Below are positions 19,240 to 55,500 of a stretch of DNA of 64,000 bases, piece by piece (within the stretch, counting starts at the first letter, position 1; each line of letters starts with the position of its first letter). The position numbers were made by a program, and so were the translations under genes. The DNA is taken from assembly GCA_014905825.1 (NCBI GenBank), contig JACGCN010000011.1:248001-312000 (forward strand). The letters run 5' to 3'. The notes below the pieces were generated by a model. That model did not search any database, was not told the origin of the DNA, and saw only the letters and a program-made list of their open reading frames with translations. The stretch comes from Lyophyllum atratum. Its lineage: Eukaryota > Basidiomycota > Agaricomycetes > Agaricales > Lyophyllaceae.

Positions 19240-22200
19240 ATGCTTGCCCTCGGCGACAATTTTACTCGCCTACTGATTCTTCTTTCCATTCCAGTAATTC
19301 TTACTGCTATTTTGGCAAACCCTTGGAGATTCAGAGCGGTAAGTCTATGCCATCTAACCTGGCGTGATTGTTGACGGAGCATCATTTGGCAGAAGGCAGA
19401 CAGCTTCCATGACTTTAACCTAGGTATTAAGGAACTAGCTCCCGGAGATGATCCTACCGTCGAGTGAGTGTTAATTTGGACGACCTGCCTGTCAAGCTTT
19501 GACAGCGGTCTCCCCAGCATTGTGGCTATTCATGGACTGAATGGGGATCGTGATGCGGCGTGGACGCACAGTGGCAGCGGCGTACTCTGGCTTCGCGACC
19601 TTTTACCCTCTGAAATTGGAACTGCAAGGATTCTGACTTATGGTTACGATGCAAACACTACCGGCGATCGGTCAACGCACCAGACCGCTCAGAGACACGC
19701 GGAAGATTTTCTGGCAAAGCTCGCAATCTTCCGAGAAAAAACTAATGTATGTATCTGGCATCAACTTATTGAATGGCCTACTCAAGGAGGTTAAAGACAA
19801 GGGAGCGACCAATCGTGTTCGTGGTTCATAGTCTCGGTGGAATAATCCTCAAACAGGTATGTGCAGATCCTTGAACGGTTTATATCAACTCACGTCTCGA
19901 CGTAGGCCCTGTTCCATGCATATCCCGCGGGTCCAAGTCATCTTTCTGACCATAAGGCGATCCAAGTGTCGACCTCGGGAATTATATTCTTGGGCACCCC
20001 GCACCAGGGTGCGAAGGGTGTGTCACTAGGCCTGATTGTGCTTCAAATCCAATCATTTTACTATTCGACAAGCAGTGGAGTTCTTGAGAACCTGGCACCC
20101 GATTCCGAGTTTCTCGAAACACAGCAAGCTCATTTCACTTCGATCAGCGAGCGAATTGACGTGAAGTTCTTCTATGAGGCACACGCAACTCGTTTGCCTG
20201 GCGGTCGGCAGATAATGGTCAGCATTATCACGTCCTTCCCTTTATGATCGACGCTAAGAGTGACCGACATTTCTAGCTGGTTCCAAGGTCGTCTGCCGTC
20301 GTTCCCGGGGTACGCGATGCTGAAGCCATTGCTATCAACAAAGACCACAGTGGCATGTCAAAGTTCGCATCATCCGGCGACGACGATTTTCAAACCGTGC
20401 TCGAATCCTTGCGGGTCATGGTGAAGAAGGCGCCACAGAAGATCCAACGCGAGTGGATGCGATACAAGAGAACCGAGAGTTAGTCCAGCAATATCATGAA
20501 AATGTTCATAGTGTAACCAATCTGTGATAGTCCTGCGCCGAGATCAAAGCATCATCAGCTACGTCCCAGGTCCCAGCCAACATTTTACTGGGCGCACTGG
20601 CCACCTAGCAGACCTTCAAAATCTCTTTTTCGGCCGGAGAAACGAAGACACGCAGCAGCGAGTTTTGCTGCACGGTATTGCAGGCGTTGGGAAAACGCAA
20701 ATTGCACTCAAGTTCGCTGAACTGAACGCAGGCAGGTAAAGGCTATCCCGATATTCCGGCTGTCATTTTCTGACTCGAGACCTGAACGTTAATCAGGTTC
20801 TGGCGCATCTTTTGGGTGGATGCGAACAACACCGAAACCATTGAATCAAGTCTGCGAACAATCGCCATCGACGATCCAGAGGCCAAGGCGTCGGGCGTAC
20901 CCGAGTCTGCTCAATCTGTTCTCCGTTGGATCTCTCGCGCTGAAGGCGAATGGTTGCTCGTGTTCGACAATGCAGATCGGGACTCCAGCCTCATAGCCAA
21001 ATATCTGCCGCCCGGAAACCGTGGCAATATTCTTGTTACGAGTCTGACGCGCGAGATGGGGCATGTTATCTCCCGCTCCATCGAGATTGAGGAAATGGAG
21101 GATGGCGATTCCATTACGTTGCTGCTGACTGCTGCTCGGCTGGACATTTCATCTGAAGAATTACGGCTGGAGGCGCGTAGGATTGTCACCGAGCTTTCGT
21201 TCTTACCACTTGCAGTCGACCAAGCTGGAACTGCGATTGCGCGAGGCCTCGTCGACCTTAACGGCTATCTCGTGATGTACTCCAACCACAGGCAACGGCT
21301 CATGGCCTATCCCTCATTCAAAGGCGCTACCAATTATGGTCGAGCGGTGTACGGCACATGGGACATGCTGTTCGATGCGATCAACAGCCAGCGCGCGACT
21401 AGCACCAGTGCGGAAAGCGCCATCATCGTCTTGGAGACGTTTGCATTCCTCCACCCGCAAAATATACAGGAAGACATATTTCGACGTGCAGCTGAAAACA
21501 GCGACGCGACCAGCCCATTCCCTCTCGCGCTCGATAAACACGGACAATGGGATCCTTTTCCCTTCAACGAGGGCATCGAGATGCTGCTTTCATACTCTCT
21601 CATCCGAAGGGGAGGAACAGGAAAGTCGTATGCCGTCCACCGCCTCGTGCACAACTGGAGCCGGGACAGGATGAAGCCGACTGAGCAGGTGGAGAAGTGT
21701 GGATCTACGAAGCGTATTCTGGTTCTCTCGATCCCGATGGGGGATATGAGCTCAGAGTACGCCTTCCGAAGGATGATCCTCCCTCACATCAAGGCGAACC
21801 GCCAGTACGCTGCAGAAGTCGACGCCCCCGCATCCCATGACGATGACGAATTTAACAAGTATTGGCGTGTCTACTCCGATAATGTCTATGGGAAGGATGC
21901 TGAGGATATGATTTCGCAGTCTGTGGAGTGGAGGAAAGCTATGTATGGGCTAGACGATCCCAACACACTTGACAGTATGGATCGATTGGTCGTGGCATAC
22001 CAACAAAATGAAAAGTGGGAGGATGCTGAGCGGCTTGGAGTGGCAGTCGTGGAGGGACGATCGAAGCTCATGGGCCCGGATGATCGAAGCACGCTGGGCA
22101 CCATGTCGAACTTGGCGTTGACGTACAAGAGTCAGCGCAAGCCAAGGGAGGCGGAGAAACTGGGACTGGAGGTGTTGGAGAGGAAACGGAGAACTTTGGG

Positions 22201-22720
22201 CCCTGAGCATCCTGACCTCCTGCCCACGATGGCCAACTTGGCATCGACATACGCCGATCTGGAGCAATGGGAAGAGGGTGAACGGCTGGCGGTCGAGGCC
22301 ATCAAGATGACTAGGAAGCTAGTCGGGGCGGAGCATCCAAGGATGATCGTCAGGCAACTCATTCTCCTGCGGGTATACATCGGTCAGGGAAGGCTGGATG
22401 TCGCTGAGAAGCTAGCGCTGCATGTCTTGATGATGAGTAAGGAGCTGCATGGAACGGAAAATCCGACGACTTTGATGTGCATGTCATACCTGGGCATGGT
22501 GTACTATCATCAAGACAATACGGCGAAGGCTGTGGAAATCCTGGATCAAGCGTTGACGACGGGCCAGACCGTGCTGGAGCCGGGTCATCCGGACCTTTTG
22601 AGGTTCCAAGTCAACCTAGATTACCTGACGCGGCGAGCGACTGAAGAGATGAGTTCTACCAAGGGTCTGCATACCAATTCGAGAGAGGAGAGATTTGTAT
22701 ATCGTCGATGGAATACATAA
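19240..22720 (+). CDS. NLR-type receptor: SesB-like alpha/beta hydrolase, NB-ARC, TPR
   Basis: Order of parts: a short N-terminal hydrophobic segment (LLILLSIPVILTAILA, residues about 11-26); an alpha/beta hydrolase of the SesB/PGAP1-like kind with AIHGLNGDRDAAW (about 19.53 kb), VVHSLGG carrying the nucleophile Ser (about 19.83 kb) and GIIFLGTPHQGA (about 19.98 kb); a linker and YVPGPSQHFTGR; an NB-ARC ATPase with Walker A GIAGVGKTQIA (20.68 kb) and Walker B WLLVFDNAD (20.96 kb); a winged-helix-like region with YAVHRLVHNWSRD (21.63 kb); then about five 42-residue kinesin-light-chain-type TPRs (21.95-22.62 kb). Fungal proteins with this layout act in self/non-self recognition and programmed cell death; this is family knowledge. 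The gene starts at ATG 19240, has short introns in the hydrolase part and one 1.9-kb last exon (20816-22720). No break was seen, so it is probably active. Confidence 0.9.
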
Positions 22721-24842: not shown

Positions 24843-27800
24843 CTAGATTCTCATGTCGACGTCATCGCCGTCCCAGATTTGTTCCCAGCGTACTCGATTC
24901 CTCGGTTCGACGTGCGCCCGGAGTTTCTCGTGATATGCCTCCCACCGACGTACAAGGTCTTCACGATTTGCTGACTGTGGACCTTCCTAAAAAGAAAAGG
25001 TGCTGAGAGAGAAATACATATGGGACGCATGGTCGAGCAATGGTCGAGACCAACCTTCAACCACCGTATAACTCGACGAACATTGCATATGTCATCGAAT
25101 AGGAAGCTCCTACGGATCTCTTGGACAGCTTTTCCCGGGGGGCTGGACAAGAGCCCGTGCGGATGCCATTTCAAACCCCACAAAGCTCTATAAATGAATC
25201 CGTTCAATTTGACAAGGATTACTCGATCATGTTCTTCAATGACTTCTTTCTCCTGTGCGTATCTATAGGAACGTTTTGGAGGAATTTGAACCCCTTCCTG
25301 TAAACACAAGTATCAATCTATGAAGGCAGCTGGTTGAAGATGAACAACAAAATACCTCTAACTTCTTGAGGTAGGTAAGGGTACTATCAAAATACTCCCC
25401 ATTGAAGAGATGCTGCCGATCAATAGACTGAAGGTGACGCAATAGTTCTTCATCTCCAGAAGGGGCGTTTGTAAGATGGTTTGCCCAGTAAAACCTAGAA
25501 TACCGATATTCAACGTTGCTGTTAATCACATTGAGTATAATGTCCAGTGATGTTCTGGCTAATGCACGGACTTCTTACTGTCCATAACTTTATCCACATC
25601 AGCGGTCAGGAGCTCCATGCACTGATGAGCTAAGTGAGTCTGACTGGTATTACTGTCAAGGAAGACTTCGGCCGGTGTGTTTTTACTAGTGAGATAGTGC
25701 CGTAGGTCACTAAGCGGGCGGCTCAAGCTAGCCAGGGCGTTCAAGACTTCGTAGATTTGAAAGGTATGGTAGGAGAATGGACGCTGGAGACCGAGTAGCC
25801 CCTGGATGATCATAGCCCCTTCGAAAGTCGACCACGAACCGAAGCACCTGGTGGGAGAATACCACATCCCTCCGGCACCCCCTCCCGAGTCGTACTCTGC
25901 AGTGAATATAGAGAGAATCCACGTATCTTGGAGACACTTTGGGGCAAGGAGGCGGCAAATCACCTTGTCGCACAGCCGTTTCAAGGGTTCAAGCTGAATG
26001 AGATCTTCTTGACGGACATCCTGCAAAATGTACGCTGTGGATAAGTACATGGTATGTTGCAAAAATTACGAAACATCACCTCAATGAGTGCTAAGCCTAC
26101 CCCATTCTTTACACCCGATATTATCCTTGCAAGTCTTACCAACATGGCGATACCACCTGCACACAGAGTCTTCAGATCGGAGAACTTCTTGTCATGCCAA
26201 GGAATGAGGACATTTTCAGGTGGTAGAGGAATCCAGCAATTATCATCCATAGCCATGACTTCTTTGACGAGGGCAGTGCGGTGGGAACCTGCTTGGATAA
26301 GATGGTCAAACCAACATTGATAGCTATAAAGTGCCGTTGTCAAAGTTTGGCGTGGAATGCTAGTGGGATCCGAAAATGATGCCTGACAAGCCTTAGAACA
26401 CTGTCTCAAGCAATCAAGCATCAGACGAGTGAGCTGTGCATGAAAGTCCGGAGGATTGATGTGAAATTTCCCTGCACGGACCGGATCGAATAGGAAGTCA
26501 CGGAATGAGGTGTGAATGGGCACATGTCCACCCAAGCCTATGTCGCGCACCACGGACTGGAGCCCACGTAAAGTGATGGAAACCTGACCAGTCTCGAGGA
26601 GGAACAAATCACCGATCAACTTGAGAGTAGGATCCCGCGCTAGTAGAACAGCGCTTAGGACAGTTTTAAGGACAGTAATGTCGCGGTCGGGAATTGTCGA
26701 GAGGATTTGGTGGTAAAGTTTGTCAAGCTCTTCGAAGGCATCAGAGCCTGGAGTACCCTTCAACACTATATCTAACTGTTCCAGGGGAGAGGTCCATTCT
26801 TGATCTATGAACCTGACCAACGTGGAAGCATAGATAAAATATCCGTCGCATCGCCAAGCCAAGAGGTTAACGTCAGCTGTGGTTGGCCAAGGGCTTGACA
26901 CAGAAGCCATCCATGGCTCGTGAGTGTCAGATGTATAAATCCTATTGAATCCATCTAGTAGATATTTGTGAACGTCATCCCGAGATTGGAAACCACCGTA
27001 GAAAGAAATAGGCTCTGCGCAGAACTGTGAAAGATCTGTTTTCTCGAAGGCACGACGGATGTTGGACTCTGGTCGGCTCACAATAAGAAAACGAAGAGGC
27101 ACGCAAGGCGTTCTGACGAGAGTAAGGATATGCTTTAAGAGTTGGTCCTGATGATCCTTTCCAGCGCATTCATCCAAACCATCAATAATAACCAGTGACG
27201 GGGTTGGGCTAGATGGTATATGCGGAGATGATGAAACTGATGCCTGGAGCGGCTCGATGACTAGCTTTTGTAGCTGGACGAATATATTTTTTTGTACGAT
27301 GGACGGGTCATCGAAAAGAATTTGTCGCAGCGCAGAGCGTAAGCTTGGGATAGAGGATAGACATGGCGAGTTGATATGCAATAGTAGTGAAAACTCGATC
27401 TATGGTGTCCCGTCCTTGACGACCACGAGAGAAGAAGAAGCTTGCGGCGAGGGTCTTCCGTTCAGCGCATTCTTCAGCGATTGTCTGTGCAATCGCAGAT
27501 TTCCCGGCGCCTGCAGGACCGTGAAGCCAGAGCACTCGCCTAAGATCCTCACCTGACTCCCTATTAACCGGGACAAAATGGGTGATCTTCTCGATGATCT
27601 CCTTGCGCGTGCCGGGGTGGCATCTAGCAGGCGGATATCGTTCATTAGAATCAAAAGCTGCACCTGGGGAAGTAACATTGAAAAGAGGAAGTAGTCCTAT
27701 ACATAATGTCTTAGGATCTGCCTAGCCGCGGACTGCATAAAGTAGACAGGCTCACCTGATTCCGACTTGGATATATTGTACTGATCCCCTCCGATATTGT

Positions 27801-32641: not shown

Positions 32642-33627
32642 TCACTTTCCTCCCTTCTTTTTAGCGTCCTTCTCCTTCTTAGCCGCTTCCTTGATCGCTT
32701 CTGCTTTCGCGATTTCGTGGGCGGCGTCGTTAAGGCCTAATCTGTTTCTAGCGATCTGAACAGGGAATCAAAAGAATGAATACGCGAGAGGAAGGACAGA
32801 AAACAAGTGGAAATGTACCTCGATGGCGTAAAACTAATAAGGCGCATTTTTGAGTACAATACAAGAGTTGAAGATAGACACTATGACTGACTTGCATCCG
32901 TGTGACTATATGATGGAGGTGAATATCAGTACCCGGGCAGGGTAGTAAGATCGTTGAACGCACCGAAAATAGTGTTGGTTTCTCCATATTCCTGTCTGGC
33001 GTCCGTACGGATCAAACAGCCGAAGTTGTATTCCTTGACTTTCTTCTCATAACTGGCACAACTTGAGACCCTTCGTTGGACGGACCGCAATATGTGACGC
33101 ACGAGTTGATAAACGTCCGCCAGCGGTTCTTCCCGTCCTCGCTCTTCATCCACTCTTCGTCCAATTTGACGAGCTTGGCATGTTCATTGTCGGCGAACTC
33201 GGGGAAGAATTCCATCGTATGAGTGAAAATCTCATCGTCGAGCCTACGGGGAAGGCGGACTATGATTACGTGCGCCTGACGTTGAAAGACCTTCTGCGTA
33301 CTTTGTCAATTTGAGGTCCCGAGGAGCCACTTTCTCTAGGAGATTCCAATACGTCTGCGTGGCGGCGTTAGTGGTCTGCGTCGCTGATTCCGTCATGTAA
33401 GCCACGCACCTGAGCTTGCTCAACCGCCTTTACGGCAAACCTCGATAGCAAAAGTAAGTGAGTTTAAGGGCGAGATCCCTCACGCTAGATGCCATGATTA
33501 GGCCAAGACTTACTGCTTCTCGATCTAGCCAAACGGTCAGTGATGAGCTTTGTCAACGCACGAGTACGTAGATCGTGCTTACCTCCATGAGATTTTGCGC
33601 GTTCTGGGGGTCAAACTTTCCGGCCAT
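32642..33627 (-). CDS. PBDC1 / yeast Ypl225w (Chp1) family protein, eEF1A chaperone
   Basis: Small conserved eukaryotic protein of the PBDC1 family; the yeast member is reported as a chaperone for newly made eEF1A. From ATG 33627 the exons give MAGKFDPQNAQNLME, FAVKAVEQAQ, TYWNLLEKVAPRDLKLTK, LDDEIFTHTMEFFPEFADNE, LVKLDEEWMKSEDGKNRWR, YEKKVKEYNFGCLIRTDAR and a Lys/Ala-rich tail (EAIKEAAKKEKDAKKKGGK) ending at 32642. The order and spacing match the family, including YxNLL, LKLT..D and YNFG.L.R. At least six short introns interrupt it. A core gene, it looks intact, and it sits with only about 130 bases between its start codon and the end of the candidate transposon. Confidence 0.9.
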
Positions 33628-33756
33628 GGTGGTCGTGTGTGAAAAGGACACGGTTGAGGATGGTGATGTGGCAGGAACTCGATATACCCGCTACTTTATG
33701 TAGTGGGTTTCTGTCCGACATGCCCCCTTTGGCCACTAAAGCTCACCACCAGTATA

Positions 33757-33938
33757 GTCACCTGATCCTGTACTTTTTTTTCGATGTCCGCTTCTGATAC
33801 CACGTTATTCGGCTCGTTACTTAGACTCGCGACCAGCCGCTATCTTAATGTTTTGTCTCTGTTTACACCCCAAACAACAACACAACAGAGACACCTTGCG
33901 ATAGCGACTGGGACAAACGGTGGACTTTTAGCCGTGTC
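33757..33938 (+). repeat. Left terminal inverted repeat of the RecQ/DUF6589 element
   Basis: Pairs with 40248-40400 on the opposite strand. The best blocks are 33757-33770, about 33815-33843 (CTCGCGACCAGCCGCTATC) and 33898-33938. The spacing between blocks differs by about 30 bases between the ends, so the repeats have diverged by indels. Confidence 0.7.
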
Positions 33939-34100
33939 CCCCCCAGCGTGACTCGGACTTGGTGAAATTTGACTTCGTGTTCTTCAAAAATCGGTCGAAT
34001 TTCAAACACATGTAGCGTACATTTCGAGAACAGAGGATCAAGAATATCTATACGAAAAAATAACTTTTTTTGCGGACCGAAATTGACTTGTGGTCGTATA

Positions 34101-36622
34101 TCACCCTGGAGGGAGGTCAGGGAAAGGTGTTGGAAGGTAGTAATTGATGTAAGGGTTCCGAGGCCGGGTTGCAGGTGTAGGAGTGGCTTGGGCACCCGTT
34201 GGGGATGGTAATGGTATAGGTATTGTGCTGTAGGAGGAAGCTTGGGGCATGGAGGGCAGATAATACGGATGTTGACCATACAGATATCGGGGGTATGTAT
34301 GATAGTGGTAATTGTGAGGTGTCATAGGTGTCATGGTATTGGGAATGGTGGCTGCCGGTGGACGCGACGTTGACGTGTGCGGGGCATGTGCATGAGGCGC
34401 AGGCGTCACCTGATTCCTCGATCGCGGCCTTTGCGTGGAGGATTCTCGCGACGGCGCTTCTTTTCTTTGTCGCTTCCTGCCATCCGCTGGCACCGTCTGG
34501 GAGGCCTCGTTCGACTCTGTTGGAGGGCGTTTGTTACTGCTGGCGGCTTTTGGCTTCGGCTGCAGGGGAGGAATGTCAAGTCCTTGTAAGTAAGTCCACA
34601 AACTTTCTCCATAAGTTGCAAACCAAAGCCACCGCCCTCCCAAAACCCGTTTCAGATGTTCCTTCGAGAGGATAGGACCGACTGAGGCAAGAATTTCGAT
34701 AGTCTCGTCTTTCAAGATACCAGAGGCGCCAATGAGTGATTCGGAGAAATCCTGAGCCTTCACGGAGGTACGCCAGGTATGTAGAGCATTTTTGACCATG
34801 TCGTTGGGCTCACCGCGCTTAACCTTTACAGAACGCTCGATGGTCACTGCCTCGCTTGGCCGAGTACGATCTAATAATTCAGGATGACAGAGGTCGCAAC
34901 ATGGAACAGTGGGATCTTCTCGAACAAGGTGAGTAAAGATTGCACTGCATCAAACATTCAATAAACTGACTCGGTTCATCGTTGCCAAAGACCTTCATCA
35001 GTACACGACGCCGACAGCGCACGGTCTGTACCAGGCTGTGCAGGCCCTCGTCTGCAGCACCGAAGTCGATCGATACGTCGTCTGTCGCCAGTTCCCTGTT
35101 ATCGTCTTGCCCTCCATGCCCTCCGCGGTTTACCCCATGAAGCACTGCATATTCCTTTGTTGCCTTCGGGTATCCGTCCGACTGGCGCACTCCTGCTGCT
35201 TTCTTGCCCTTGCGTTTGCTCTTACCAGCATCCTTTTGAAGGTTTGTCTCGAGCCCCGATAGATCTGCCTCATATGCTGATTTCTCGACAAGCAGGACAG
35301 CAAGTCCAACTCGACTAGCTGCTCGAGCTGCCCGTCCTGCTCGCTGAACAAAGCTGGACACGTTTGCAGGCAGTTTCCATTGGCTAACGATGTCGACGTC
35401 CGGGATGTTACAACCCTATCATGGTGTGAGTACCTCTTGAATTGTACACTCAATAAAATTGTTTCCTTACCATGCCTGCTGCATCAGTACAAATCAAGAT
35501 CCGTACAACACCCAGTTTGAACAGCCGCATCAGCTCGGCTCGATACTCCTTCGTGTAGGCCGCACTATATGGCCGGATGAGTCCGAGCTCTCGCAAGTGT
35601 TCAGGTAGCCGTTCATGTAATCGCTGCTCGATATCGGGACCAGTACTGATGCTGTCTGCATAGACAAAGGCCTTCGGGATCTGGGAGGCTTCGACGACAT
35701 TGTTGGGAATGAGGAAGTCGAGATCACTGTAAGTGTTCATTGTGTTTTGAATGGCCCGTACCACAATTGACACATTTGGTCGGTTGTTCCCTAGGTTGAT
35801 TGTAATGTAGTCCTGTCCGAATTGGAGTAGATTTAGTACATCCTTTTGCACGCGTGGAGGCAGGGTTGCGGACATCGCGACCATTGGTGTCCCTTTAGGA
35901 AGTAATGCCCGAAGAATCCCTAGCCGTCCATATTGCTTTCGAAAGCCTGAGCCCCAATGGGAGACGACATGTGCCTCATCAATAACCACTGACAGAACCC
36001 GCGAGCAAAATTCAGTGTCTCCGAGGACGTTCTTGATGAACCTTTTCGAGAGCAGCATTTCGGGTGAGATAATAACTATCTGATATGCCCCTGAGCATAT
36101 CTTCTGAGGTGTGTTTCCATGTCGGTCTTCCGTGTCGAAATTGCTATTTAACTATTCTGCTTACCGTCATCAGCTCTGGTTGACAGCCGCCATGAGCACT
36201 ATTAACGGCAACAGCTTTCAGCTTGTACTCTTCTTCAAATGTTTGAACCTACTGCCAGTGAGTCCGAAGTATGCTGAGCATTGTCTTCGAAAACTTACCT
36301 GCTCTTCCTGTAGTGCTATCAACGGCGAAACCATCAAAGTAACCTTTCCGTTGCTCTTCTCGTGGACGTGAGGGCCCGCCGCAATAGCTGTCTTGCCCGA
36401 ACCAGTACCCGCATGGACCAGCACACTGTGTCCGGACAGCTGTGCCTCTATAGCTCCAGCCTGGTGAGTGCGTGGCGGCTCACTCCAGCCAAAAGCTTGC
36501 TGAACCTTTTCCTGAAACCCTTCTAGATCCTCTGGTTTCAGATGCTGGCGTTTCGGCCACGTATTGGTATCAGGCTGCCGGCGGGATTTCCTATTCTTTT
36601 TCTGCCTGCGTTGCGGAAGCAT
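34101..36622 (-). CDS. RecQ-type superfamily 2 DNA helicase (element-encoded)
   Basis: From ATG 36622: a Lys/Arg-rich N-terminus, FQEKVQQAFGWSEPPRTHQ, then motif I GTGSGKTAIA (about 36.38 kb), VSPLIALQEEQ, VIDEAHVVSHWGSGFRKQY (motif II; RecQ has DECHCISQWGHDFRP), MVAMSATLPP (motif III), a second RecA lobe with AFVYADSIS and RILICTDAAGMG, and motif VI QRAGRAARA. CRRRVLMKVFGNDEP and VPCCDLCHPELL (about 34.9-35.0 kb) form a RecQ-like zinc-binding cluster. The C-terminus is a Pro/Tyr-rich low-complexity tail (YHYHTYPRYLYG) ending at 34101. About five short introns are seen. Start codons of this and the DUF6589 gene are only 64 bases apart, which points to joint expression. The role in the element, such as unwinding ends or repairing gaps, is inferred. 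Confidence 0.85.
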
Positions 36623-36686
36623 TGTGGGCTAAGACAGGCCGTGAAGTGATCGAAAAATTGTCACAGCCACTCCGTCCATCTCAGTC
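36623..36686. promoter_or_regulatory. 64-bp divergent promoter of the RecQ/DUF6589 pair
   Basis: The two start codons face away from each other across 64 bases, so both transcripts must be started from within this gap or from inside the opposite gene. There is no clear TATA box. This suggests coupled expression. Confidence 0.6.
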
Positions 36687-39600
36687 ATGAACCCAGGTCT
36701 GCCGTTTTTGAGCCCTCTAACGACGGCGTCCGAGTCGTCTTCTGAGGATGATGATTCTTGTGATGACACTCCTCTCGAAAGTCTTACCACCCGAATTCAT
36801 CGTCGACCTGCTTCGCCAGGGTCATCTGCTCTTCCCGGCCTGGGACCATTCACTCCAAGACACACAATTTCTCAGCCTCCGAACAACACACCTCATACAC
36901 CATCACAATCTCATGCTGCACCACCCACCCTTCCCTCCAGTGGCCCGGTAAACAGCAGCCCAATCATTGGCACGCGGGAGCAGAGAAAGCAGAAACGGCT
37001 CGAAAAATCACAGAAAAAACAGCGTGCTACCCTGCGCAAGAATCAGGCTTCCCGTGCCGCCGTCGCTGCCCAGCAGAAGAAGGCTGCTTGCAACGAAGTT
37101 CTTCAGTTCATGCATACAAAGGGCCTTCGCTTCAACGAACTAATGGAACATGTATTCGACCCCGAGCAACAGCAAGGCAGTATCCGCTGGCACGAGTTTT
37201 TTATTTTTCGCGGCAGTGCAACGAAAATTCTGGACTGGTGGACCTCCTCCGGAAACAGTAAACCGGCCCAGGCAGAGGTCAAGGATTGGGCGGTTAAATT
37301 TGTTTCGAAGACCATCTCGCGCGAGGCGCGCACAGTAACGCGCTCGAAGGAACTCCAGACTATGGGAAAGACTATAGACGAGTCATTCATTACCTCCTTC
37401 GACTTCCCGAGCATTCTCGACAAGCTGCGTGACATGGCATCGATCTCGATTCAAATGCTCACATCTTTTGCAACATCGTCACGGTCTCAAAAGCACACCC
37501 CACAACGAAAGGCTAGGACAGCACTGGTATGTGTGCAGCTCTCCCAAATGGGTTCAATGCCCTGATACTTAGACATTTTCAGGTCATCACATCGGCGGCT
37601 CTTGCATGTCTCGGTGAATACAGCCATGCAAACAATCTCGCGAAGCGCATCATTGGGCTCTATCTGTACGCAACGGGTTCACAACGACAGCCTATCTCCG
37701 TCCTCTCGACACTTGGTCTTTCGGAAAGCTACTCAAATATAGTTTCCCGGCCAAGTAGCAAGAAGATCAGCTCCATTACCCAGCTAACCATGACCACAAT
37801 CCCGGGACTCACATCAGACTCACCGACTCCTATTCCTCGCGAAGCACCCGCACCTGCCGGACTCAACTCACCGATTCCTATTCCTTGCGAAGCAGCCGCA
37901 CCTGCCACCACCAACCCACGATTCGAGCGGACGGGCACCTTGCACCAGCTTTCAGGTGCTATGCGTGGTATGGCTCACGCTATTGCTGCTACTGGGCTCT
38001 ATGGGCTTGTTTACGACAATATCAATATCATGTTCCGTTCTGCTGAGCAGATCATTGGTCGTCACGGTATGTTCACCTTCATTTTTCGGTTGTCACTCTA
38101 TCCTGATTGTGCCTGCAGACTCTCAAGAGAACGGCACATGCGCGACGATTTTCCCTCTATGGAAAGCTAAAGTCGCTGATATCAAAATTTCGGACTTCCA
38201 GCAAGCCTTCCTTGCAGCCTCACCACTCGAGATCACCGATATTCTTCACACCAAGGACGAAGCACGCCACTTCAAGCAGTCCCTCGTTTTTGCGATCATG
38301 CGCGTGGCGATTCTGGCTGGCGGAGAAGGATTCAAAAAGTTCGAAAAGGAGACCGTCGAAAAACAGCCCGTCTCGCCGTTCAAGATTGATGTTCACCAGA
38401 CCGAGCTTCATCCTCTTCCCGCATGGAAGATTGACGAATCAACGATCATTGGCAACGCTGAGGTGGATGAAGCGATCATTGAAGAGCTGCAGCTGCGTAA
38501 GGATAACCCAACCTTCCCAGATACTGTCCGCTTCATGGGTGGAGACCAGCTTTCGTTGGCAAGGCTGCGTGCTCTCGAGAACATCCGCGCTGGCCATGAG
38601 GCCGGACATGCAGGCTTTTTTTGGGGTGCGTGGATGCCGGGACTTTTCCATGCCAAAATTGCGGATATGCACGGCATGCTTGTTACTCATTGGGGAAAGC
38701 CGGTCGAGCGCAATCCTGCCTCTCTCGCATTTCATAACACCCGCCTTGACCGACTCCCAATCACTCTCACGTCGCTTCCCCCTTTCCGTACATGCCGTGA
38801 CCTTGTTTTTGTCTCGCTCTATGCCCGCGTCCTCCACTGTCTATTATTGGTTACTGGGTGTGCTACGCTTGAGGAGTATACCACTAAAACAACATCTTGG
38901 GAGGACTTCCAGTCCGATGCTCTCCAGATATACGAGCGCTTTGCCAGCACATCAGTCGTCGACGAGCTTCGTCACCAACGGGCAAACTGCAAGTCAAAGC
39001 CTCTCGATGCGGGTGACATGGTCTTCGAGAATGCAGTTCTCTTCATGCGAGACGCACTCATCTCGCGCGAGTTTGCCGATGCAATCAAGGCCGGGGATTC
39101 AGGACGGGTGCTTCTTGTTCTCAAGACCTGGGCTCTCAGCTTTCGAGGAAGTGGCCGTACGAAGTACGCATATGAGATGCTCCACGTCATACACAATCTT
39201 ACCCATGTATGGCCGAAGCCTATTCAGTATGTCGTTGCTGTTGGCCATTGAATAGGTGTTCATGCTTTTACTGACAGGGAAATTATCCTCAATAATTGGC
39301 TGCTGAATCCAACTGGCAAGCCGAATGCCTTCGTCGAGATGGATCTTGTACAAGAACACCTCAACTTCTGGATAAAGGTATGGAACTGTACAGTTACTCG
39401 ACACATAACTGACATCTTGCATCAGAGTTATTACAAAGCCCATGGCTCTAATGCTTCTTGGGATTGGCTCGAGCTCGTGGCGCCCTGCGTTACTGCTCTC
39501 CGACACTTGGCGAATGGACTGAATGATCTTTTCGGCGATGATCAGGGTTCGCGCCATGCTCCTCCCGATCTCACGGAGGACATCGAAACTTTGATGAGAA

Positions 39601-40199
39601 GCCTCATGGATTATAAAGTATATCAGATCATACCTGGCCGCATTCTTGATGAGGATGACCCACCAGCAAATGATATCATAACAGTAGGACTACAGAACAT
39701 TACAGACAACTCGAAGAGTCCACTTGCAGAGTATGTCGCGAATTTCCTTCGCCTTCAACAACGCCGACGCAAACAGCCGATCATCATTCCCTCACTGAGT
39801 ACTGACCTCGCTACGACAATCACCTCTACCATCAATGCCGACCTGGAGCCAGTGACAGCCTTCGCCCTCCCAACCACACATTCTTCACTTGTGCCAGAGC
39901 TGCCGACTTCTGCCGTCACCATGACCTCACACACGACGCTATCACCCGGTGTCGATGACATGAACACATTTACTTCAGATGATGAAGACGACAATCAGGA
40001 TACCTCGGAGATCGACGCAATACTCGATGAACTTCAAAGTCAGGAACCTGAGCCGACGTTGACGAGAGAAGGTGCGGAGGACGTTGCGCTGGATATGGAT
40101 AAGGTCTATGCTGTTGAACTTGATGATATTGAGGTTTCAAGTAGTTCAGAGGGCGAGGAGGAGACAGGAGACGAGGGAGACAATAGTTTTGTATTCTGA
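36687..40199 (+). CDS. DUF6589-domain protein, possible transposase
   Basis: About 1,120 codons with three or four short introns (one at about 37529-37583 removes to ...ARTALV | ITSAALACL). The N-terminal 110 residues are Ser/Pro-rich and basic (REQRKQKRLEKSQKKQ). The conserved core runs from about 37.1 to 39.6 kb and shows DUF6589 hallmarks: MGGDQLSLARLRAL (38.54 kb), MPGLFHAKIADMHGML (38.63 kb), HWGKPVERNPASLAFHN, YAYEMLHVIHNL (39.17 kb), NNWLLNPTGKPNAFVEMDLVQE (two pieces, 39.29-39.35 kb) and HLNFWIK. The D, H/D and E residues in the GDQ, FHAK..D and DLVQEH motifs could form an RNase-H-like DDE site, but that is my inference. The C-terminus is very acidic (SSSSEGEEETGDEGD). It pairs with the helicase in a TIR-bounded unit. 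Confidence 0.85.
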
Positions 40200-40247
40200 C
40201 CTAGAGCAATGCATTGAAATTTCACTAAGTTAAACGTGACAGACCGT

Positions 40248-40400
40248 GACACGGTTAAAACGCGACCGTTTCTCCCAGCCGCTACGCACACAAGCGCCCA
40301 GCGGAGTTTGCTTAGCGGTTGGTCACGAGCCTACTCGTTACTCATTGGAGTGGCCGATACTGATACTGATACTGAGCGGAGTTTGTCAGCATCACGTGAC
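40248..40400 (-). repeat. Right terminal inverted repeat of the RecQ/DUF6589 element
   Basis: Reverse complement pairs with 33757-33938. It also contains two direct copies of GCGGAGTTTG (40301-40310 and 40377-40386) and three copies of GATACT (40354-40371). Short sub-terminal repeats of this kind often serve as transposase binding sites. Confidence 0.7.
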
Positions 40401-41530
40401 CTCCCAAAGCGGTAATCGCGCTTTCATCAGCACCCTCAATGCCAACATCCGCTCAATATCGTCGAGGATTGCACTCTGGAAAGGCTGTGAAGCTCGCATC
40501 CCAACTATTCATGCTCCCCTTTGCACTTTATAGCTCCAATATTAGAAATTTCGGATCTGCTGACCTGGTCTTGAGCGGTGTTACACATTACAATTTTTGA
40601 TCTCTTCACCTCTTCATGGGTACAATTTCAGTGTTACGAAGAGGTAAATCTCTTCATGCCCATTTGGACAACGGATGCTCACTTCTCAATGTAGGGTGGC
40701 CATATAGTGTAGAAATTTTCGATCTTCAACTGGAGATTTTTTGGTCCGAGATGCTCTTAAACTGTTTTGTTATATGTTACGAGGGTGTAAATTTCTTCTC
40801 TTTCTGTGTAATTCTACGGATCGCATCTCAGAACCGCCAGACCACCACAGCACACCCAAATGCGAGATGTGTTTTGCGCGGTCGCATATCACTCGTCCTC
40901 AACGTATGATTCCTTTCCCCATTGATGCACCCACCTGATCTCGACCACCATCGACTCAATCCAGCGACCACATCGTCTCCCCTCCAGGAGGTATAGATAC
41001 CCCGTAGAATAGGTGGTATTCTACATCTCCCTTTTTCCCCACTTTCCTCTCACTACCACTTCATAATTTGCTCTCATAAATCAAACACCAATCTTATTGA
41101 TACTGCGTGAACGTCAGCCTGACATCTCTGCTGGAATCAATGTTGCAATTTCAATCAGCAGGTTTGCGAATCCTCAGCACCCGATGAACACATGCCGTAC
41201 AGCTGGGACGAGTAGTCTGCAGGATTTGAGTTGAGGTTCTCCGATACAGCACCAAACACTCTTTCCTTTTTTGGTATTTATTTTTTTATTTTTTTATTTA
41301 GTCCACCCCAATCAGTATCGAGCCCGTTATTCGTCTGTGCGCAAGAGCAGCGACGAAAGCGTAATTCGGTCGCTGAGCGCTGCGCTCTTGCGGTCCTCGA
41401 TTCAACTGGGTCAGAGCAAGATATAGATACAGCGTGAATGAATAAAGATAGAACTGCCGTGGAGTCGCATTGACATCACTGTCGTAGTCCATGCCAATAT
41501 GGAGGGGGCTTGCATCCACAAAATCTATTA
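40401..41530. other. Non-coding stretch between two mobile elements
   Basis: No supported gene. It contains a small hairpin (GTAGAAT AGGTGGT ATTCTAC, 41002-41022) and a T-rich run at about 41.26-41.30 kb. Its right end carries the TTA duplicated by the Harbinger element. Confidence 0.55.
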
Positions 41531-44204: not shown

Positions 44205-45545
44205 TTAATCATCCATCGTTATATCTGGGTGCTCGCGTAGATATTGTTGGTATTGATTCCACATCGCCTGCGCAATGCTATCCCTTGTTGTTGTTGCCCG
44301 TTCTCTCTCTGCACGATCAACATATCCATCTGCTAGAACACCCATATCTCCAGTTGCTCCTGGGTCTGGATCAATGAGATCAGGATCATCGAGATATGCC
44401 TCGATATCAGCAGGGTCATGTGTCATGATGAAGTTGTGCACCGCAGCAAGCCCTGGCGGGATTCGAGCCTGAAGATCCATGTCGTACTGGGGTGCCCGAG
44501 TGAGAATTGCCCATCGGGCTTTAAGAACCCCAAATATCCTTTCGATAATATTCCGGGCCTGTGCGTGCCGTAGATTATAGAGTTCCTCCTTATTTACAGG
44601 CCTTAAAAACCATGAGCAATTTATACTAGAAATGGATGTACTGCGATACTCACCGTACATTGGCGCGACCCCATTCAGCCAAATGGTATCGAACTCCACG
44701 GTACGGAACCAGAAGCACATCACAAATACCAAATCCTGCATCGGCAAGATAGTACATTCCGGCTGGAATCACAAAGTCGGTCAAACGTGCATTGGCGAAG
44801 AGTGTTGCATCAGCAGCCGATCCCTCCCAACCACTGACGATGTATATAAAACGGAATGCGAAGGAGCAGCATGCAAGGCAGTTTTGTGAGAACCAGCCTT
44901 TGCGGTTCCTAGCTGCATGTCGATCCGCAGCAGAAGGGGAACTGTGGATATGTGTTCCGTCCATGGCGCCCAGAGCACCAGAGAAAAAGGGGAAGAATTT
45001 CGGATTGTTTCGGATGTATTCATGAATAGGTTCATCCGTGTTGGGTAGGCGAACATGAATGGTGTAGAATGGAGGTGAGGATATAGCAATCAAAATCTTT
45101 CGGAAGTACCTAGTGGTCGTTGAGAGAGAAATATTCGGAAAAGGCGGACAACATACTTGGATATCGTTTCGTTGGATCGCTGAAATCGCTCTCCTATATG
45201 GCGAACAGATAAACCTGTGACGCAGGCATACAGGAAGATTGCAGCCTGTTCTTCTAATTTTACATGCCTCGAGTCGGAAAGACCACATACAGTCCGCAGC
45301 TCTATCACGAAGGCAAGGAAAACATGCAATCGAACACCGAGCTCTGTCCAAATTCGATCGGGATGGCCATGGATTAGCTCGTTCAACCAGGCATCACCAG
45401 ATAGTGCAGATGTATGGTAGTCTTGCTTCCAATAGAGCGGATTTGCATATAAAGTAACTGCTATTCCAACAAGCTGTACCACATATGCTGTCATAAGCAC
45501 AGCTATACGCTTTCGGAACGTGTCAGAGTTGCGAGGGCCATCCAT
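44205..45545 (-). CDS. PIF/Harbinger DDE transposase (HARBI1-like, DDE_Tnp_4)
   Basis: Three exons. ATG 45545 opens an N-terminal helical region with LHVFLAFVIELRTVCGL and an HTH-like VKLEEQAAIFLYACVTGLS...RFQRSNETISKYF, joined across an intron at about 45.11-45.16 kb. The catalytic triad is visible: D in GALGAMDGTHI (about 44.97 kb), D in MYYLADAGFG (about 44.75 kb) and E in ARNIIERIFGVLKARW (about 44.53 kb). A second intron at about 44.60-44.66 kb joins WGRANVR to PVNKEELYNLRHA. It ends HPDITMDD at 44205. All catalytic residues are in place and no stop interrupts the frame, so the enzyme is probably active. It is convergent with the Myb-like gene. Confidence 0.93.
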
Positions 45546-52526: not shown

Positions 52527-55500
52527 ATGGCTTTTACTAATGCGCAATATACTAATGTCTTCGGAGGCTCGTTTATGGATATCCGAGGCGATCACTACAA
52601 TATCGGGAGCATCTCAACCAACAAGCCAGAACCAGGTAAGCCTATGTTGTTACGCAGTCCACGGCTAGACAATTCCTGAACATATTCTATATAGGACTAG
52701 GGTCTCTCTTCAATGCTACTTCCCCAGGTGCCGCTTTCGATTCGTCTGAACGAGATCCACCTGCCAGATGCCATCCTGGCACGCGCAAGGGGATCCTCGA
52801 AGAGATCCTCGATTTTGTTCCGGTCAATAGGGAGTCAGGCGAGGATCTTAGGCGAGTGCTCTGGCTTCACGGTCCTGCAGGTGCGGGGAAATCAGCGATT
52901 GCGCAGACAATCGCTGAAGAATGCGCTGAACGGAACACCCTCGCCGCAAGCTTCTTCTTCTCTCGTGGTCGTCAAGGACGGGACTCCATAGATCGAGTTT
53001 TTACTACTATTGCATATCAACTCGCCATGTCTATCCCAAGCTTGTGCCCTCCGCTCCAACAGATTCTTTACAATAACCCATCCATCATCCATAAAAGAAA
53101 TTCCGTCCAGCTTCAAAAACTAGTCACCGAGCCGCTCCAGGCATTATTCTCGTCCTCACCGGATATACCACCTACGACAATCCCGTCACTTATCATTATC
53201 GATGGCCTGGATGAATGTGCTGGAAAGGATCATCAGGACCAACTCTTAAACCATATCCTTACCCTCATCAGAACGCCTTGCGTGCCCCTTCATTTTCTTA
53301 TTGTGAGCCGACCAGAGTCCAACATCCGTCGTGCCTTCGAGAAAACAGATCTTTCAAGATTCTGCACCAAACCTATCTCCCTCTACGGTGATTATCAATC
53401 TCAGAAGGACGTCCGCAAATATCTGCTACATGAATTCAATAGGATCTATACATCTGACGCTCACGAGCCATGGATGGTTTCTGTGCCAGACCCGTGGCCA
53501 GCCACAGCTGACGTTGACCTCTTGGCTGGGCGATGTGATGGATATTTTATCTATGCTTCCACGCTGGTCAAGTTCATAGACCAACCATTCACATCCCCCC
53601 TGCAACAGTTAGATGTAGTGTTGAACAGTACTCCTACAGGCTCTGATGCCTTCGGAGAGCTTGACAAACTTTATCACCAAATCCTCTCGACAATTCCCGA
53701 CCGTGACGCTACTGTCCTTAAAACTGTCCTGAGGGCTGTTTTAGCGCTGTGGATTCCTACTAATTTGATCGGTTACTTCTTTTCTTTCGAAACTGGTCAG
53801 GTTGACATCACTTTACGGGGACTCCAGTCTGTTCTGCAAGTCTTCCCGGGCCAGTGGGGCTTGGGCGATATCCATCACACACCCATTCACACCTCATTCC
53901 GCGACTTTCTATTCGATCCGAACCGTGCCGGGAGATTTCACATTGCTCCTGCGGATTCGTACTTCCATGCACAGCTCACTCATGGGATGCTTGATTGCTT
54001 GAGACGGTGTTCTCAGGCATCTCAGGCATCACTTTTGGATTCCACTACAGGCCAAGTTCTATCAGCAGCACTTTATAGCTATGAAACTTGGGTCCACCAT
54101 TTTATGCAAGCAGGTCCCCACCGCACTGCCCTTGTCAAAGAAGTCATGGCTATGGATAACAATTGCTGGATTCCTCTGCCACCTGAAACTGACCATATTC
54201 CTTGGCATGATGAGAACTTCTCCAACCTGAAGACTCTGTGCGCAGCTGGTATGGCCATGTTGTTAAGCCTTGGAAAGACATTATCAGACGCGAAGGGTCG
54301 GGCAGAGTCAGGAATCAAGGTGATGTCCGATAGGTATTGCGAGACTCCACCTACTTATTCACACGGCACCTTTTGCAGGACTCGGATGAGCCGGAGTCCC
54401 TTCTCCATCAAGAAGATCTCATTCAACTTGAACACCTAACACGGCTGCGCGACACGGTGATTTGCCGCGTCCTTGCCCCAAAGTGTCTTCAAGATTCATG
54501 GATTCTTTGTATATTCACTACAGATCACGACGGGAGTGACATAGTAGTGTCTGGCATATCAGCGTGCGAATATTCTAATAGGTGCTTTGATTCATGGTCG
54601 TCTTTGGAAGGGGGTATGACAATCCAGGGGTTACTCGGTCTTGAGCGTCCATTCTCCTACCATACCCTTCAGGTTTACGAATTCTTGAAAGCCATGGATA
54701 GCTTAGGCCACCGCCCTCTTGTCGACCTACGCAGCTATCTCTCCAGCAAAAACCCACCGCCCGAAGTCTTCCTGGACCGTAGTATCAGCCACGCCCACTT
54801 AGCTCATCGGTGCATGGCGCGCTTGACTGCCACTGATGTAAATAAAACCATGGATGTTGAAATGTTCGTGCATCAGCCGGAACATCACTGGACAATATAC
54901 TCAACGTGATTAACAGCGACGTTGAATGTCGGTATGCTAGATTTTACTGGGCAAACCATCTTGCAAACGCCCCTCCTGGAGAAGAAGAACTATTGCGTCA
55001 CCTTCAGTCTATGGATCGGCAACATCTTTTCAACGGGGAGTACTTTGATAGTGCCCTTACCTACCTCAAGAAGTTAGAGGTATTTGATTGTTCATTTTCA
55101 ACTACCTATGTTCATAAATCGATACTTGCGATTACAGGAAGGTGTTCAAATTCGTCCAGACCTTTCCTATGAATATACGCAGGAGAAAGAAGTCATTGAA
55201 GAACATGATCGATTGATCCTTCTCAAATTGAACAAATTTATCTATAGAATGTTTTGGGCTGACGAAATGACTCTTCGCTACCTGCGAGGGCCTCCGGGAG
55301 AAACTTTCCAAGCGCTCCGTAGGAGCTTCGTATTCAATGACATATGCAATGTTCGTCGGGTTAAACTGTGGTTGAAGGTTGGTCTTAACAATGCTTCCCT
55401 CACGCACGTCTCTCTCAGCACATTTCCTTCTTAGGAAGGTCCACAGTCACCAAATCGCGAAGACCTGGTACGTCAATGGGAGGCATATCATGAGGAACTT

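What the first reader, a model, noticed from the sequence alone, without database searches (positions are those of the whole stretch)
33757..40400. RecQ-type helicase and DUF6589 protein packaged between long inverted repeats: a possible self-mobile element class
Two divergent genes with start codons 64 bp apart are enclosed by imperfect inverted repeats whose inner, middle and outer blocks all pair (31 of 37 bases in the inner block), and the genes fill the space between the repeats. DUF6589 has no assigned activity I can name. Its GDQ, FHAK..D and DLVQEH motifs would fit a DDE-type nuclease, and an element bringing its own RecQ helicase would be unusual among cut-and-paste transposons, recalling helicase-dependent mechanisms. 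Sub-terminal direct repeats (GCGGAGTTTG twice, GATACT three times) add to the transposon look.
Basis: partly seen in the sequence, partly recalled or inferred. Interest (0 to 1): 0.87.

Follow-up and report, generated by a model that had tools for sequence, protein, structure and literature searches.

The report
RecQ-carrying AcademH-type transposon in mushroom
This stretch of the genome of a mushroom, Lyophyllum atratum, is a mobile DNA element: it and the 21 other end-paired copies read here each lie between two copies of a 9-base target sequence (one pair with a changed base), and it carries a RecQ helicase gene and a DUF6589 gene that is likely its transposase, so it is most likely a new member of a known kind of transposon, AcademH.

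Summary
It runs from 33822 to 40333 (6,512 bp), begins TAGACTCG, ends CGAGCCTA and lies between copies of CTCGTTACT. Of 22 end-paired copies read in the same genome, 21 have an exact 9-bp target duplication and one 8 of 9. They range from 68-bp gene-less copies to a 17-kb copy.

DUF6589 and RecQ travel together: a RecQ match lies within 6 kb of 18 of 21 DUF6589 loci, divergent at 6 and convergent at 12. The proteins co-diverge across species (37 pairs, Mantel r 0.88).

A RecQ-type helicase plus a 9-bp duplication fits AcademH (helicase, 9 or 10 bp), so this is most likely a new AcademH member, not a new class. The deciding homology (DUF6589 against Academ transposase) could not be tested.

Unexplained: the 11 ends tested, from four lineages, each hold a hairpin-capable palindrome next to the tip.

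The parts
33822..40333 (.). the whole element, 6,512 bp, TAGACTCG...CGAGCCTA
   Evidence: ends fixed by 10 copies with both ends and an exact 9-bp duplication; checked
33813..33821 (+). left target-site duplication CTCGTTACT
40334..40342 (+). right target-site duplication CTCGTTACT
33822..33960 (+). left end (terminal inverted repeat and subterminal region)
   Evidence: multicopy
40200..40333 (-). right end (terminal inverted repeat and subterminal region)
   Evidence: multicopy
33833..33844 (+). left palindrome, outer arm CCAGCCGCTATC
   Evidence: 11 of 12 pairs with the inner arm; folds
33900..33911 (+). left palindrome, inner arm GATAGCGACTGG
33854..33863 (+). second stem inside the left palindrome, 5' arm TGTCTCTGTT (pairs with 33884-33893)
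33884..33893 (+). second stem inside the left palindrome, 3' arm AACAGAGACA
40275..40288 (-). right palindrome, inner arm
40309..40322 (-). right palindrome, outer arm (12 of 14 pairs)
34101..36622 (-). RecQ-family helicase gene, 5 exons set by hand: 36622-36299, 36248-36165, 36103-35471, 35415-34956, 34915-34101; 771 aa
   Evidence: public model P0122 99% identical over 90% of it
36687..40199 (+). DUF6589 gene, likely the transposase, 5 exons set by hand: 36687-37526, 37583-38066, 38119-39226, 39278-39377, 39426-40199; 1,101 aa
   Evidence: public model P0002 100% identical over the searched residues 130-960
38015..38017 (+). codon of candidate first catalytic Asp (YDNIN; D379 of P0002)
   Evidence: invariant in 62; 4 of 4 distant members aligned there; Asn in P0303 and unaligned in P0263
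38544..38546 (+). codon of candidate second catalytic Asp (GDQ; D538 of P0002)
   Evidence: 95% of 62; 5 of 5 distant members aligned there; Asn in P0300 and unaligned in P0086
39342..39344 (+). codon of the invariant Asp of DLVQEH (D787 of P0002)
   Evidence: invariant in 62 and in the 16 of A5
39354..39356 (+). codon of candidate third catalytic residue, Glu of DLVQEH (E791 of P0002)
   Evidence: invariant in 62 and in the 16 of A5

Best explanation
The stretch 33822-40333 is a 6,512-bp mobile DNA element with inverted-repeat ends and a 9-bp target duplication, present with many relatives in the genome; it likely moves by cut-and-paste with its DUF6589 protein as a predicted DDE-type transposase and its RecQ helicase as a likely helper, and it is most likely a member of the AcademH transposons. 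Shown here: exact ends, target duplications, short copies that keep both ends, the recurring RecQ-DUF6589 pair, co-divergence of the two proteins, purifying selection on both genes. Inferred: DUF6589 would bind the ends (TAGRCTCG tip plus the adjoining palindrome), cut them with a D379-D538-E791 (or D787) active site and join them to target strands staggered by 9 bp. RecQ would unwind the cut ends or the palindromes and help finish the product. The short copies (68-1,428 bp), too short for either gene, would be moved in trans.
For: End-paired copies read: 22; exact 9-bp duplication in 21, 8 of 9 in one. Six of them hold both genes: window, C64 6,469 bp, C57 11,831 bp, C76 17,169 bp, C20 5,968 bp, C57:65174 6,282 bp (gene places). 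End motif 77 against 5 for the control pattern. RecQ within 6 kb of 18 of 21 DUF6589 loci. In other species 41 of 118 DUF6589 proteins tabulated share organism and contig length with a tabulated RecQ protein (118 of the 120 listed, of 335 found). 37 unique pairs co-diverge, Mantel r 0.877, 0 of 2,000 permutations as high; r 0.98 over 11 within-species comparisons, not all independent. dN/dS 0.05-0.17 for four RecQ exons and 0.11 for DUF6589 exon 1 against the C64 copy. Conserved D, D and D..E motifs. AcademH: helicase and 9 or 10 bp duplications (PMC10045372 passage); RecQ in Academ (PMC3627910 passage); fungal Academ copies with PF00270 and recQ_fam (PMC6416283 passage).
Against: No sequence link between DUF6589 and any solved or named transposase: 0 PDB matches for profile A1 at E <= 1, two implausible ones for A5 at E 0.8-1, no transposase family among 16 members in Pfam at E <= 10, where the filters drop most weak matches. 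The candidate first and second Asp are each Asn in one of 16 deep relatives. No structure model was obtained. No Academ transposase sequence was found to be on hand and the AcademH paper is not held, so the homology that defines Academ is untested. Three of 21 DUF6589 loci show no RecQ match. No clean empty site was found for the window copy. dS is high (1.7-2.6) or saturated, so the ratios are rough, and DUF6589 exon 3 gives none. Two C75 copies have right ends without a common duplication, read here as a rearrangement.
Confidence: 0.85

Rival explanations
1. A RecQ-carrying transposon of a superfamily of its own: DUF6589 is an unrelated transposase, and the helicase and the 9-bp duplication resemble AcademH only by convergence.
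For: No search linked DUF6589 to a transposase family; the library search found no paper that names DUF6589.
Against: Helicase family, duplication length, host group and gene content match what is written of AcademH and fungal Academ (passages).
Confidence: 0.1
2. A Mutator-like (MULE) element: 9-bp duplications and longish inverted repeats, with a captured RecQ gene.
For: 9-bp duplications in 22 copies, 21 exact, suit MULEs (length recalled).
Against: No MULE transposase domain listed for the 16 DUF6589 proteins scanned; RecQ is no single capture but recurs at 18 of 21 loci.
Confidence: 0.02
3. KolobokH: the other described fungal transposon with a RecQ helicase.
For: RecQ, fungi only (PMC9587614 passage).
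Against: KolobokH encodes RecQ downstream of the transposase domain, whereas here it is a separate gene on the other strand. Kolobok duplicates TTAA (recalled), here 9 bp of varied sequence.
Confidence: 0.01
4. A stationary host gene pair that merely lies between chance or older repeats.
For: No clean empty site for the window copy was found.
Against: Shared ends with target duplications at 22 places.
Confidence: 0.01

Closest known systems
AcademH (Academ superfamily, Kojima 2020; the paper itself was not held, seen only through passages of citing papers)
   Same: DNA transposon with helicase; duplications of 9 or 10 bp, here 9; known from Basidiomycota, Ascomycota and Mucoromycota
   Different: no difference found; DUF6589-Academ homology untested; end palindromes not mentioned in the passages seen
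AcademX (Academ superfamily)
   Same: same superfamily if DUF6589 is the Academ transposase
   Different: nuclease instead of helicase and 3 or 4 bp duplications (passage)
KolobokH
   Same: fungal DNA transposon with RecQ helicase (passage)
   Different: RecQ lies downstream of the transposase domain; TTAA duplication (recalled)
Helitron
   Same: carries a helicase
   Different: HUH nuclease and single-stranded transposition (PMC12730594 passage); here 9-bp duplications and no Helitron_like_N match
DUF6589 (PF20231)
   Same: Pfam family of unknown function to which the likely transposase belongs
   Different: here attached to a mobile element with fixed ends

Membership tests
AcademH | encodes a helicase inside the element | tested here: met
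   Pfam DEAD and Helicase_C for the window protein; for the L. shimeji relative P0123, RecQ structures and TIGR00614 at E 8.5e-49 but under that model's cut-off (166.6 against 219.8 bits)
AcademH | target-site duplication of 9 or 10 bp | tested here: met
   9 bp in 22 copies, exact in 21, 8 of 9 in one; criterion from a PMC10045372 passage
AcademH | terminal inverted repeats | tested here: met
   TAGRCTCG tips in the window lineage; TAGAC tips in C20
AcademH | DDD/E transposase homologous to Academ transposases | not testable with these tools
   no Academ sequence on hand; paper not held
AcademH | DDD/E catalytic fold | tested here: inconclusive
KolobokH | TTAA duplication (recalled) | tested here: not met
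   varied 9-bp duplications
KolobokH | RecQ downstream of the transposase domain | tested here: not met
   separate divergent gene
MULE | MULE transposase domain | tested here: not met
   none listed for 16 proteins; weak matches are dropped by the filters
hAT / KDZ | duplication of about 8 bp (recalled) and their transposase domain | tested here: not met
   9 bp; no such Pfam match listed
Helitron | HUH nuclease; insertion without duplication (recalled) | tested here: not met
   duplications; no Helitron_like_N match

The most novel reading that the evidence does not exclude
DUF6589 elements are a helicase-dependent transposon system with hairpin ends. The palindrome that lies next to the tip of each end type examined would be extruded as a hairpin, DUF6589 would recognise hairpin plus tip, and the element's own RecQ would open or remodel these hairpins to let the ends be cut and joined 9 bp apart. 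Two old lineages with opposite gene layouts keep the same plan.
Probability: 0.12. Interest if true: 0.75.

Novelty: new member of a known kind. Interest (0 to 1): 0.42.

Why it matters
It attaches a Pfam family of unknown function, common in mushrooms, to a mobile element with defined ends, so such genes can be recognised as likely transposon genes and their RecQ neighbours need not be counted as host helicases. It gives end sequences, duplications, short copies without genes and candidate catalytic residues, which is what an excision assay needs. If the palindromes matter, it offers a system in which to ask why a DDE-type transposon would carry its own RecQ.

Tried and rejected
Empty site: joining 33000-33821 to 40343-41200 and comparing with the loci held by then gave none that spans the junction with both flanks. 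The left flank matches C78 (97%) and a 131-bp repeat, the right flank matches C112 (95%), separately.

Column-wise covariation of the end palindromes: right ends gave one pair with changes on both sides (covariation score reached by 7 of 500 shuffles, but the number of such pairs by 410 of 500). So the palindrome claim rests on per-sequence pairing and folding, not on covariation. The pairing search only looked for arms starting at bases 9-22, so their position is partly set by the search.

Against an essential left hairpin: the 82-bp copy read (L098, exact duplication) keeps the left outer arm without its partner. One search lists six copies of 81-82 bp and one of 86 bp by end positions; only that one was read, but the similar sizes suggest that they spread in that form.

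RecQ motif counts in 120 relatives: Walker A in 71, DEAH in 119, motif VI in 102, all three in 55 (a narrower pattern gave fewer). Gene models may be cut; I claim nothing from it. Profile searches of DUF6589 against PDB, NCBIfam and PHROGs gave no link.

Copies left out of the duplication count: two C75 copies (inverted, no common duplication); right ends on C116, C73 and C35 with nearly the same flank, hence not independent; end matches without a partner or whose flanks were not read.
Full report
What is there. The window lies in a 64.8-Mb genome. The DUF6589 protein of a public Lyophyllum atratum assembly matches the window's at 100% over the searched part, on a contig of the same length, 1,772,675, so the species is taken to be Lyophyllum atratum (Agaricales, Lyophyllaceae). 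The gene pair is as described: a DUF6589 gene on + (36687-40199) and a RecQ-family helicase gene on - (36622-34101), starts 64 bp apart, both open through hand-made models of five exons each. Pfam calls DUF6589 at E 1.8e-146 and DEAD plus Helicase_C. For the L. shimeji relative P0123 the best solved structures are entries named RecQ, WRN and BLM.

Where the ends are. The inverted repeats align far better than chance (77 against at most 57 in 500 shuffles). Searching the genome with either end plus some flank gave 16 and 18 matches, the window's own included; 4 and 3 of them are to the flank only. Aligning copies fixes the ends at 33822 and 40333: TAGACTCG... on the left...CGAGCCTA on the right. 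The flanks carry the exact 9-bp repeat CTCGTTACT.

That it moves. Among copies with both ends, 9-bp duplications were checked in 10 (nine exact, C86:1513477 8 of 9), two more, five more and five of the other lineage: C20, C57:65174 and C64:169930, C103:157772 and C46:232689 (read by eye from sequences printed). That is 22, of which 21 exact. Twelve of the first 17 are short copies of 109-1,428 bp, one (C122, 4,598 bp) was not read inside, and four hold both genes; the two longest (11,831 and 17,169 bp) probably hold insertions. Of the other five, two hold both genes (5,968 and 6,282 bp) and three are short (68, 82 and 601 bp). A 14-bp end motif occurs 77 times, its reversed control 5 times; a motif for the other lineage 66 times against 8. 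Two C75 copies form an inverted pair 99.8% alike without a common duplication.

That the two genes belong together. Of 21 DUF6589 loci in the genome, 18 have a RecQ match within 6 kb: 6 divergent, 12 convergent (matches, where the RecQ search scored 58 of 103 candidates). The other divergent loci are 53-84% identical to the window protein piece used; the convergent loci that one search lists are at most 42%, and four convergent loci (C97, C78, C73, C116) are not in that list. So the two layouts look like two lineages. Both share a TAGAC start and the 9-bp duplication. In other Agaricomycetes 41 of 118 tabulated DUF6589 proteins share organism and contig length with a tabulated RecQ protein, three of them on contigs of only 5.8, 6.9 and 7.1 kb. 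Only the best 120 of 335 and of 418 hits are listed, so this is a lower bound. In 37 unique pairs the distance matrices correlate at r 0.877 (0 of 2,000 permutations). Host phylogeny contributes to that, but 11 within-species comparisons, not all independent, give r 0.98. Against the C64 copy dN/dS is 0.05-0.17 in four RecQ exons and 0.11 in DUF6589 exon 1, with dS at 1.7-2.6; DUF6589 exon 3 is saturated.

How it likely works. DUF6589 has no recognisable relative, but three motifs persist over deep divergence: DN (D379 of P0002), GD (D538) and DLxQEH (D787, E791), with H573, D695 and D722; one of 16 deep relatives has Asn for the first Asp, another for the second. Median spacing is 158 residues from first to second Asp and 256 from second Asp to Glu over 98 of 120 proteins with all three motifs. 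This suits a DDE transposase with a large insertion before the Glu (general knowledge of such enzymes, recalled). The RecQ role is inferred from its recurring presence and its constraint.

End palindromes. I tested 11 ends from four lineages (some closely related). With arms sought only from base 9 to 22 on, the best pair of arms starts at base 9-18 and has 10-21 matching pairs (one perfect, ten imperfect); 0-3 of 200 shuffles do as well. Left ends of 12 copies fold as single-stranded DNA with z -2.6 to -8.0, right ends with z +0.05 to -2.55, the window's own right end only -0.9 (-2.0 for the opposite strand). Controls from the element interior average 0.18 (60 pieces, none at or below -2), from the window 0.05 (80 pieces, 3% at or below -2) (right-end pieces were 72 bases, controls 100). 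Ends of the other lineage give z -2.4, -2.6 (left) and -4.0 (right). In the C64 lineage the arms match within an end (scores 9-11) better than across ends (4-5); in the C57 lineage 11-12 against 9, in the window lineage 10-13 against 7-12. The left and right palindromes of the C20 element differ in sequence. Against an essential role: the 82-bp copy read keeps the left outer arm without its partner, and column-wise covariation is weak or absent. They may be hairpins or paired binding sites.

What it is among known things. I saw passages of other papers, not the AcademH paper itself. AcademH duplicates 9 or 10 bp, AcademX 3 or 4, a difference that the author links to helicase and nuclease (PMC10045372). 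AcademH is a low-copy element of Basidiomycota, Ascomycota and Mucoromycota (PMC10799480). Academ carries a RecQ helicase (PMC3627910). Fungal Academ copies carry PF00270 and recQ_fam (PMC6416283). KolobokH is a second fungal RecQ transposon (PMC9587614). By helicase, duplication length and host, the element fits AcademH; the homology test is missing. No paper of the library names DUF6589, but the AcademH paper is not in that library, so I do not know whether the link DUF6589-Academ is in print.

Verdict. A real transposon, probably mobile in the recent past, most likely AcademH: a new member of a known kind, with a likely functional assignment for DUF6589 and an unexplained palindrome at its ends.

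Noticed in passing
33684-33814: About 131 bp next to the left end recur at four other places of the genome at 95-98% identity and at more with less; the element sits beside or inside another repeat.
   Followed up: partly
40334-41200: Right flank about 95% identical over some 870 bp to C112:22385 onwards; the left flank 33000-33685 is 97% identical to C78:332437-333123.
   Followed up: partly
L056, L057 (C75:658234-670430): Two DUF6589-RecQ copies 99.8% alike lie in inverted orientation, with no common target duplication.
   Followed up: partly
L098, L099: Very short copies (82 and 68 bp) with end motifs at both sides and exact 9-bp duplications; one search lists more of 68-86 bp by position, not read.
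   Followed up: partly
37818-37913: 48-bp tandem duplication (83% alike) in a proline-rich part of DUF6589 exon 2.
   Followed up: no
44650-45393 (-): Open frame with DDE_Tnp_4 (PF13359), a different transposase family, 4.3 kb to the right of the element.
   Followed up: partly
20786-22720 (+), 25981-27399 (-), 52640-54439 (+): Frames with TPR repeats or NACHT/NPHP3_N domains, as in fungal NLR-like proteins (recalled).
   Followed up: partly
L083 (C57:317600-321600): The part read of the extra 5-6 kb of the 11.8-kb C57 copy holds no open frame over 147 aa; probably a nested insertion.
   Followed up: partly
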